This document shows positions 40,538 through 44,441 of a DNA stretch of 64,000 bases, in pieces. Below the pieces are notes generated by a model that worked only from the letters and a program-made list of their open reading frames with translations, was not told the origin of the DNA and did not search any database. How positions within the stretch are numbered: position 1 is the stretch's first letter; every line of letters starts with the position of its first letter. Made by a program: the position numbers and the translations under genes. Source of the stretch: Albidovulum litorale (lineage in GTDB: Bacteria > Pseudomonadota > Alphaproteobacteria > Rhodobacterales > Rhodobacteraceae); assembly GCF_025751495.1 (NCBI RefSeq), contig NZ_JAOWKZ010000003.1, positions 124,001 to 188,000 on the forward strand. The letters run 5' to 3'.

Positions 40538-40566
40538 AAAGGGCAGCCGTCAGGCTGCCTTTTTTT
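40538..40566 (+). terminator. Rho-independent terminator of acnA
   Basis: A GC-rich 7-bp core stem (40542-40548 with 40553-40559), extended by an AAAG/TTTT flank, with loop GTCA and seven T in a row. Confidence 0.9.
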
Positions 40567-40877
40567 CGTTTCCTCCCCAAAGCCCTCTGAATGCATGGAA
40601 AGGCCACCGTTCGGCCGCGCGCGCGTCGCGCAGTCAATCGGGGCAATCAGCCCGCGGTTGATGCCGTTTTTGCCAAACGCCCAGCAATTCACCCAGGCGA
40701 CACGGAAGTTGCCGCCACTTCTCAGTGGCTTCATAACTAGAAGATTTACTGGTATTTTAAGCCTGCGTTCACGCGCCATTCATATAACATCAATGTGATT
40801 CTGTGTCGTGAATTAGTTAATTGGTCGTGTTCAAGAAATGATCCGGTAAGAATACGCAACTTGTTTTCACTCCAACA
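40567..40877. other. Intergenic stretch without recognised gene
   Basis: The 311 bases after the acnA terminator become clearly AT-richer toward the right. Short open frames on both strands lack ribosome-binding sites and family resemblance. I see no repeat or RNA signature here. Confidence 0.6.
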
Positions 40878-40906
40878 TTGTTTCACAATATGAAACCGTT
40901 TAATAT
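40878..40906 (+). promoter_or_regulatory. Promoter with spacer palindrome, for a small transcript
   Basis: TTGTTT (40878-40883) and TAATAT (40901-40906) are separated by 17 bases, a good sigma-70-type match. The inverted repeat GTTTCA-N5-TGAAAC (40880-40896) lies over the -35 box and spacer, where a repressor would act. Transcription would start near 40913. Confidence 0.5.
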
Positions 40907-40973
40907 CAATAACTTACAAAGATATCTCCACTTCGGAATATTTTTACCCGACTAAACTTTGTATCAAAACTGC

Positions 40974-41072
40974 ATGAGAGCGATTGTAACCAGACTTCCA
41001 TTTGTTCCGAGTATGCCGTGGTTCGAAACCGCCGGTCTGCTCTTGTTGATCGCCGTAACACGCGCAGGGTGA
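40974..41072 (+). CDS. Possible 32-residue hydrophobic peptide
   Basis: An ATG at 40974 opens a frame that ends in TGA five bases before the strong terminator stem. The peptide begins MRAIVTRLPFVPSMPWF and has a short hydrophobic run (AGLLLLIAV). Its first codons (AGA, GTA, CCA) are unlike the high-GC neighbours and it has no ribosome-binding site. The stop-terminator spacing is its only real support. Confidence 0.22.
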   Translation: MRAIVTRLPFVPSMPWFETAGLLLLIAVTRAG

Positions 41073-41077
41073 CGGCC

Positions 41078-41118
41078 GGCCGCCGCGGAGAGCAGCTACT
41101 CCGCGGCGGCCCATTTTT
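41078..41118 (+). terminator. Strong Rho-independent terminator with no large gene before it
   Basis: A perfect 13-bp GC stem (41078-41090 with 41099-41111) with an eight-base loop is followed by CATTTTTATTTAT. The T-run exists only on the plus strand, so it does not serve the minus-strand ccm operon to its right. Confidence 0.85.
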
Positions 41119-41207
41119 ATTTATCGGTGCATTTAGTGCATTAGCGGGTCATCCGGGCCTGAACATTTACGCAGCACTCGGCCAACACGGTCCACCCGAA
41201 GTGAACC

Positions 41208-44081: not shown

Positions 44082-44441
44082 CTATTCCACCGGAAGAAGC
44101 GCCGCGGCGATCCGCCGCCCCTCGGAGAGAAGGACGTTGTAGGTGCGCGCCGCCGCATCCGTGGCCATCGCCTCGACCCCGATCCCGGCCTCTTCGAGCT
44201 TCTGCCGAAGCGCCGCAGGCGGGTTGGCGATTGACGTGCCAGTCCCGAGGAAGAGCACGTCGATCTGATCGGCGAGCGCGATCAGGGGCGCGGTATCCTC
44301 ATACCCGCCCCAAACCAGCGCCGAGGTCGAAGTGACCAGCACCGCACCGTGCAGCACCTTGCCATCGACGCGGAAAAACCCCGGCCCGTAACCGTCGATG
44401 GGTGTCAGCCCGTCAAAGGCGATATCGGTTAATTGGATCAT
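44082..44441 (-). CDS. Mth938-like domain (DUF498) protein
   Basis: A 119-residue protein of the Mth938/NDUFAF3 fold. The marks are GYGPGFFRVDGKVLHGAVLV, a GTGTSIANPP loop and a C-terminal TDAAARTYNVLLSEGRRIAAALL. Its human homologue NDUFAF3 assists complex I assembly; the bacterial role is unproven. The gene overlaps secF by four bases and precedes ccmA, a position conserved in relatives. The link to membrane biogenesis is inferred. Confidence 0.88.
   Translation of the reverse strand: MIQLTDIAFDGLTPIDGYGPGFFRVDGKVLHGAVLVTSTSALVWGGYEDTAPLIALADQIDVLFLGTGTSIANPPAALRQKLEEAGIGVEAMATDAAARTYNVLLSEGRRIAAALLPVE

What the first reader, a model, noticed from the sequence alone, without database searches (positions are those of the whole stretch)
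40878..41118. Self-contained small transcription unit downstream of acnA
Read directly: TTGTTT-N17-TAATAT promoter, a GTTTCA-N5-TGAAAC palindrome over the -35 box and spacer, about 205 nt of sequence with an internal inverted repeat, then a perfect 13-bp terminator stem with a T-run on the plus strand only. No gene of normal size uses this terminator: acnA has its own at 40538-40566, and the ccm operon runs the other way. A repressor-controlled small RNA, or an mRNA for the 32-residue frame at 40974-41072, is inferred.
Basis: partly seen in the sequence, partly recalled or inferred. Interest (0 to 1): 0.75.

Follow-up and report, generated by a model that had tools for sequence, protein, structure and literature searches.

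The report
Overlooked 32-residue membrane microprotein gene
The short stretch between the aconitase gene and the cytochrome-c maturation genes is a tiny, unannotated gene for a 32-residue protein that probably sits in the cell membrane; recognisable relatives occupy the same place in several related genera, some next to a shared control site, so it looks like a real new small-protein family whose job is still unknown.

Summary
Partly confirmed. The 13-bp terminator is the window's only perfect one of that size and its stem shows compensatory changes. Divergent versions lie at the same place in other Rhodobacteraceae genera, in tandem in Frigidibacter. Predicted shape: short N-terminus, then one hydrophobic helix. 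In several genera a palindrome GAAAC-N5-GTTTC is centred 64-101 nt upstream; elsewhere the site occurs near some exopolysaccharide and RTX genes (no background rate). The window's palindrome has the same arms reversed, so its role is unproven. Best reading: a small regulated gene for a single-pass membrane microprotein, a new family of a known kind, target unknown.

The parts
40974..41072 (+). Small gene: 32-codon frame MRAIVTRLPFVPSMPWFETAGLLLLIAVTRAG plus stop
   Evidence: Peptide match in 15 of 22 genus genomes; pN<pS in 66 of 66 pairs of 12 sequences; synteny
41078..41111 (+). Intrinsic terminator, perfect 13-bp stem, loop AGCAGCTA, T-rich tail 41114-41122
   Evidence: compensatory pairs in the 9 genus sequences aligned; fold
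40962..40967 (+). TATCAA, conserved TAYCA element 12 nt before the ATG; candidate -10 box of a leaderless mRNA
   Evidence: 8 of 14 genus members examined; 8 of 10 in a group chosen after seeing the alignment, shuffle mean 0.06 of 10
40880..40896 (.). Palindrome GTTTCA-CAATA-TGAAAC, possible altered operator, centred 86 nt before the ATG
   Evidence: Kept as GTTTC-N7-GAAAC in D. aestuarii; other genera carry GAAAC-N5-GTTTC centred 64-101 nt before the ATG; role in the window inferred
40878..40906 (+).
   Evidence: not listed by the scan
40820..40863 (+). Conserved 44-nt block ATTG...GAAATGATC...CTTG upstream of the small gene, function unknown
   Evidence: Ungapped in the 12 genus sequences aligned
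40538..40563 (+). acnA terminator (separates acnA from the unit)

Best explanation
The unit is a monocistronic small gene. The product is a single-pass inner-membrane microprotein: a short basic, proline-containing N-terminus, a conserved Glu at the entry of one hydrophobic helix of about 16 residues, and an end just behind it (sequence pattern shown; membrane insertion inferred). In related genera the gene is preceded by a palindrome GAAAC-N5-GTTTC, which elsewhere occurs near some exopolysaccharide and RTX-protein genes, so I infer that a DNA-binding protein switches the microprotein together with cell-surface functions, and that the microprotein acts by binding or tuning a membrane partner. 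Rough probabilities: translated gene 0.95; membrane-inserted 0.85; palindrome is the operator in other genera 0.75, in the window itself 0.35; role in an envelope or surface-lifestyle programme 0.35.
For: Peptide in 15 of 22 genus genomes at E<=0.01, of near-constant length. pN<pS in 66 of 66 pairs of 12 sequences in the true frame, against 40 and 3 of 66 in shifted frames. A genus-only profile scores at least 5 bits in 7 of 41 non-genus acnA/ccmG gaps, 0 on the minus strand, 0.45 per shuffled set; the top two score 21.3 and 19.5. Promoter type, start codon (ATG, TTG, GTG) and leader change while the peptide is kept. Helix 16-31, mean pLDDT 96 in residues 21-30. Basic residues before the hydrophobic segment in 10 of 10 non-genus members. 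GAAAC is the commonest 5-bp arm of N5 palindromes in the 41 gaps (7 gaps; next 2); [AG]AAAC-N5-GTTTC occurs in 8 of 41 gaps, six profile-supported and two with longer, similar peptides. Wider sample: GAAACNCATTGTTTCC has 23 sites in 22 of 394 genomes, reversed-pattern control 0 in the rows shown; 7 sites lie at acnA and/or ccmG and all 7 have a hydrophobic small frame downstream, three of them (L254, L255, L256) outside the 41 gaps.
Against: No transcript, ribosome-profiling or protein data. 7 of 22 genus genomes gave no match, and most of the 41 non-genus gaps have no supported copy. Of the 7 gaps, L190 is not a credible peptide, and L114 and L170 (5.3, 5.2 bits) lie within the range of single shuffled sets (up to 8.8). 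L210 and L218 are below the profile control. TAYCA is absent in 6 of 14 genus members, and the window has no good -35 before it. The window's palindrome has its arms the other way round; its form occurs only once more in its genome, and GAAACNCATTGTTTCC is absent from it. The regular expression was widened to AAAAC after seeing L170. The looser pattern GAAACNNNNNGTTTCC is only mildly enriched in 8 genomes (29 matches, both strands counted, against 18 in the control). The small-frame test is loose: 5 of the 16 other sites also pass it, none with an ATG first start. Many genus members have Arg or His behind the helix, which weakens the topology. The surface-gene link rests on one flanking protein, picked by eye, at 10 of 16 sites, without a background rate.
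Confidence: 0.75

Rival explanations
1. A non-coding regulatory small RNA: the transcript from about 40913 to 41118 acts by base pairing and the 32-codon frame is incidental.
For: Size, own terminator and extra RNA folding (z -3.96 for 40976-41122, in good part the terminator, itself z -3.67).
Against: Codon-level selection in 66 of 66 pairs; peptide homologues in other genera; no Rfam family at gathering score, only weak sub-threshold matches.
Confidence: 0.04
2. A membrane toxin like those of type I toxin-antitoxin loci: the small hydrophobic peptide damages or silences the membrane and is held back by transcriptional control or an antisense RNA.
For: About 32 aa, one hydrophobic helix, tandem copies in Frigidibacter, patchy presence, fast divergence. 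A membrane-silencing role is described for the small membrane protein YohP (PMC12719787, abstract and section list seen).
Against: No antitoxin is known here, though I made no dedicated antisense search (one weak minus-strand promoter-like match at 40967-40940). Purifying selection with a conserved Pro and Glu; fixed genomic address; leader short or absent in the genus, whereas type I toxin mRNAs usually have long structured leaders (recalled).
Confidence: 0.15
3. A leader peptide or attenuator: translation of the Leu/Ile/Val-rich peptide controls the terminator in front of a downstream gene.
For: Run CTG CTC TTG TTG ATC GCC GTA shortly before a strong terminator.
Against: No plus-strand gene follows: ccmG is convergent and ends at or within about 100 nt of the terminator in 13 of 14 oriented genus loci, the other (L004) having it 1.2 kb away. 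The codon run is not kept in relatives.
Confidence: 0.02

Closest known systems
Bacterial small membrane proteins under 50 aa as a class (e.g. E. coli YohP, PMC12719787, abstract and section list seen)
   Same: Tiny, one hydrophobic helix, easily missed by annotation
   Different: No sequence relation shown; no Pfam, NCBIfam or PHROGs match for the members scanned; fixed place between acnA and ccmG
Pos19, a small coding RNA of Rhodobacter sphaeroides (PMC5036791, passages read)
   Same: Small coding transcript with own promoter and terminator in the same bacterial family
   Different: Pos19 lies between cxp and fadB, is RpoE-driven and was reported as not found in other species; this gene lies between acnA and ccmG and occurs in several genera
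PsrA operator of Pseudomonas fluorescens (GAAACN5GTTTC, PMC3510223, passages read)
   Same: Same palindrome as in the other genera here
   Different: The regulator in Rhodobacteraceae is not identified; the window's own palindrome is GTTTC-N7-GAAAC; the TetR-type search was too general to help
Type I toxin peptides (DinQ, PMC3567139, search listing only; TisB, Ibs, Hok recalled)
   Same: Small hydrophobic peptides, sometimes tandem
   Different: No antitoxin RNA known here; conserved Pro and Glu; homology not tested directly

Membership tests
Small membrane protein (class) | Translated frame under 50 aa | tested here: met
   32 aa; codon-level selection in 66 of 66 pairs; translation itself not measured
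Small membrane protein (class) | One hydrophobic helix long enough to span or enter the membrane | tested here: inconclusive
   Helix 16-31, pLDDT about 96 in residues 21-30; 15-residue hydropathy 1.67 for the window and 1.85-2.71 in 10 non-genus members; short, insertion not measured
Small membrane protein (class) | Located in the membrane | not testable with these tools
   Needs fractionation or a reporter fusion
Type I toxin-antitoxin toxin | Antisense or adjacent RNA antitoxin | tested here: inconclusive
   One weak minus-strand promoter-like match at 40967-40940, whose -35 is the conserved TATCAA read backwards; no dedicated antisense search was made
Type I toxin-antitoxin toxin | Growth arrest on overexpression | not testable with these tools
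   Experiment
Regulatory small RNA | Conserved RNA rather than codon constraint | tested here: not met
   Codon constraint in frame; no Rfam family at gathering score
Leader peptide / attenuator | Downstream gene in the same direction | tested here: not met
   ccmG convergent
PsrA-type (TetR) operator | GAAAC-N5-GTTTC palindrome | tested here: not met
   Window: best match to this form has 4 mismatches; it carries GTTTC-N7-GAAAC instead. Met in other genera
PsrA-type (TetR) operator | Bound by a TetR-family regulator | not testable with these tools
   Needs gel shift or DAP-seq; TetR-type genes are many in the 5 genomes searched

The most novel reading that the evidence does not exclude
A previously undescribed, sequence-labile membrane microprotein is anchored at one genomic address (between acnA and ccmG) across Rhodobacteraceae and belongs to a surface-lifestyle regulon defined by GAAACNCATTGTTTCC, shared with exopolysaccharide (chain-length and sugar-transferase) and RTX genes, so that the control site is conserved better than the peptide it controls.
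Probability: 0.3. Interest if true: 0.65.

Novelty: new member of a known kind. Interest (0 to 1): 0.5.

Why it matters
Small membrane proteins are numerous and often missed. This one comes with three handles: a fixed address next to two well-known genes, a conserved Pro/Glu plus helix signature, and in other genera a candidate operator that points to possibly co-regulated surface genes. That makes function directly testable, for example by finding the regulator that binds the palindrome. It also shows that profile searches at family scale can miss such genes: the genus profile found clearly only the genus and one Frigidibacter genome, whereas gene order found them in further genera.

Tried and rejected
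Orphan branched-chain amino acid attenuator (the Leu-Leu-Leu-Leu-Ile-Ala-Val run): rejected, no plus-strand gene downstream and no second copy in the genome at E<=10.

Known RNA family: none at gathering score over the whole window; sub-threshold matches such as FinP and Thermales-rpoB cover the terminator hairpin and were dismissed. Known protein family: none for the window peptide or any of 16 members in Pfam and NCBIfam, none for 3 members in PHROGs, no PDB match for the profile.

Shared bidirectional terminator for ccmG: rejected, because the T-run is on the plus strand only. RpoE-type promoter (TGATCC) for the GAAATGATC block: considered because Pos19 uses it, but no matching -10 at the right distance by eye; left open. 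TTAAC half-sites before the ATG in several genera: seen by eye, not tested.

Family-wide search with the genus profile: 38 of 394 genomes match at E<=0.1, but only G000, G020 and G324 (Frigidibacter) below 1e-6; of the weaker ones I followed only G033, whose match proved to be the syntenic gene (L169). A two-sequence profile found clearly only its own two seeds. My first choice of candidates in gaps used a loose regular expression and was replaced by profile scores against shuffles and the minus strand. L120, L173, L179 and L184 hold similar peptides but stay within the control, so they are not counted; L190 scored 7.1 and 6.1 bits but its frame is not a plausible peptide. L114 and L130 were first found by eye.

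The TetR (BetI) search was uninformative. Ten paper searches showed no description of this gene in their listings; that covers only the held open-access library and those terms. In PMC5521070 and PMC11796252 I only ran term look-ups.

Full report
OBSERVATION. The stretch was read and every stated element is present. Against chance they differ. The perfect 13-bp hairpin with a T-run at 41078-41111 is the only one of its kind on either strand of the 64 kb. The promoter TTGTTT-N17-TAATAT matches 7 of 12 consensus bases; the surrounding 254 nt are 35% GC and contain 8 such matches against 5.1 per shuffle, so it means little on its own. A 6-bp inverted repeat with a short loop occurs in 38% of shuffles.

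THE FRAME IS A GENE. A DNA search of the window's genome and 60 relatives matched 13 of 22 genus genomes below E 1e-5, own included; outside the sister genome the matched part is the frame plus terminator (query positions from 133 on), not the AT-rich 5' part. One non-genus genome (G036) matched only a 38-nt upstream stretch. The genus includes Defluviimonas aestuarii JCM 18630, whose contig has the length and the sequence of sister genome G001. The peptide profile matches 15 of 22 genus genomes. In the 14 oriented genus loci ccmG was found in 14 and acnA in 12, with no acnA in the roughly 1.5 kb held for the other two. Translations align almost without gaps: consensus MRxLxxxLPFxPSMPWxExAGLLxLIxATxxR. 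Among 12 sequences pN is below pS in 66 of 66 pairs in the true frame, mean 0.33 against 0.64; the shifted frames give 40 and 3 of 66. L009, L010 and the G003 copy were left out of that count because of length or late discovery.

HOW IT IS TRANSCRIBED. Of 14 genus sequences examined (L009 left out), 8 have TAYCA starting 12 or 13 nt before the start codon; in a group of 10 chosen after seeing the alignment (without L004, L005, L007, L010) this is 8 of 10 against 0.06 per shuffle. A -10 box at that distance puts the transcript start on or next to the ATG, and the window has no Shine-Dalgarno-like sequence in the last 16 nt. I infer a leaderless mRNA. The weak side is the -35: in the window no good hexamer lies at the right spacing. 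L004, L005 and L007 instead start with TTG or GTG and show TTGACG-N17-CATTCA/CATGCA further upstream (by eye). A 44-nt block ATTG...GAAATGATC...CTTG is ungapped in the 12 aligned intergenic regions, unexplained. The terminator stem pairs in 97.4% of cells with 3 pairs changed on both sides, reached by 4 of 500 shuffles (9 sequences aligned, the other genus loci not). Its T-run is on the plus strand only, so it serves this unit.

BEYOND THE GENUS. The family-wide profile search of 394 genomes from 393 genera gave 38 genomes at E<=0.1 but only the genus and one Frigidibacter genome below 1e-6. Frigidibacter carries two tandem copies between acnA and ccmG, in two species. Because the peptide is short and diverges fast I then used gene order. 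I read 88 non-genus ccmG loci (28, 60; the remaining genomes were not read) and found acnA convergent within about 1.5 kb in 41 (14, 27). With a genus-only profile, 7 of these 41 gaps score at least 5 bits on the plus strand, none on the minus strand, and 0.45 per shuffled set (20 sets); the top four score 21.3, 19.5, 10.4 and 8.6, while single shuffled sets reach up to 8.8. One of the 7, L190, is not a credible peptide. After seeding with five non-genus members and two Frigidibacter copies, three more (L181, L196, L170) exceed 8 bits, a level reached in 0 of 40 shuffled sets. The eight supported members have basic residues, then a Glu at the entry of one hydrophobic stretch, and end just behind it.

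A CONTROL SITE. In the same 41 gaps [AG]AAAC-N5-GTTTC occurs in 8: six of the eight profile-supported gaps and two (L210, L218) with similar but longer peptides that are below the profile control. The arm was widened to AAAAC after seeing L170. Counting all possible 5-bp arms with N5, GAAAC is first with 7 gaps and the next has 2. The centre lies 64-76 nt before the start codon, or 97-101 in the two longer ones. Both Frigidibacter copies have it at 75 nt, one with a single mismatch, and genus member L016 has a one-mismatch form at 65. The looser pattern GAAACNNNNNGTTTCC is only mildly enriched in 8 genomes (29 against 18 in the control). As a test on a wider sample, which includes the genomes used before, I searched 394 genomes for GAAACNCATTGTTTCC: 23 sites in 22 genomes, none for the reversed control in the rows shown. 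Seven sites lie at acnA and/or ccmG (L222, L223, L231, L237, L254, L255, L256), and all seven have a hydrophobic small frame downstream; L254, L255 and L256 were not in the 41 gaps. The same loose frame test is also passed at 5 of the 16 other sites, by frames with GTG or TTG first starts and without the Pro/Glu pattern by eye, so the seven count by pattern rather than by the test alone. At 10 of the 16 other sites I picked one flanking protein by eye for Pfam: two RTX proteins, one Wzz match below its cut-off, a sugar transferase, a family 2 glycosyltransferase and a TetR protein; three related large proteins and one other gave no match. There is no background rate, and 6 sites were not scanned. 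The same palindrome is a demonstrated PsrA site in Pseudomonas fluorescens (PMC3510223, passages read).

WHAT THIS SAYS ABOUT THE WINDOW. The window carries GTTTC-N7-GAAAC centred 86 nt before the ATG: the same arms in reverse order. It is kept in D. aestuarii; a related GTTTC-N6-GAAAC stands at 126 nt in L016; 10 of 13 genus sequences have no exact copy of either form. Its form occurs only once more in the window's genome, and GAAACNCATTGTTTCC is absent there. I treat it as a possible altered operator, not a shown one.

WHAT IT DOES. The predicted model has no structure in residues 1-15 and a helix 16-31 (mean pLDDT 77.7, pTM 0.36, six sequences). With basic residues at the N-terminus this suggests a single-pass inner-membrane peptide with the C-terminus outside, by the positive-inside rule (recalled); Arg or His behind the helix in many genus members speaks against a firm topology. 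A partner-binding or membrane-tuning role fits the conserved Pro and Glu; a toxin role is the main rival. The link to surface functions is the best lead and is inferred from the shared site only.

NOVELTY. No match in Pfam, NCBIfam, PHROGs or the PDB for the members scanned, and no description seen in the listings of ten searches of one open-access library. Small membrane proteins are a known kind, so I file it as a new member of a known kind.

Noticed in passing
L079, L094, L095 (genus genomes G016, G015, G010), acnA-ccmG gap: In three of the seven genus members without a match the gap holds a gene of about 100 aa instead; the one scanned (L094) matches Pfam ABM, antibiotic biosynthesis monooxygenase.
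   Followed up: partly
L251, L263, L267: GAAACGCATTGTTTCC stands next to three related large proteins without a Pfam match; in L251 and L263 the other neighbour looks like citrate synthase (name recalled, not tested).
   Followed up: partly
L261: The same site stands 88 nt before a TetR-family gene, which could be an autoregulated candidate for the unknown regulator.
   Followed up: no
window 40820-40863: 44-nt block ATTG...GAAATGATC...CTTG is ungapped in the 12 aligned genus sequences, about 110-150 nt before the small gene in the window, with no known role.
   Followed up: partly
window 41078-41111 and relatives (e.g. L088): In several relatives the ccmG reading frame appears to run into the terminator hairpin and stop inside it (by eye), whereas in the window ccmG ends 97 nt away; the loop AGCAGCTA is nevertheless unchanged in the 9 sequences aligned.
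   Followed up: partly
L071 and L072 (Frigidibacter): Two tandem small genes, the first followed by its own hairpin (by eye), each preceded by the palindrome or a one-mismatch form at the same distance.
   Followed up: yes
window 44082-44441: A DUF498 gene sits between secF and the ccm genes.
   Followed up: no
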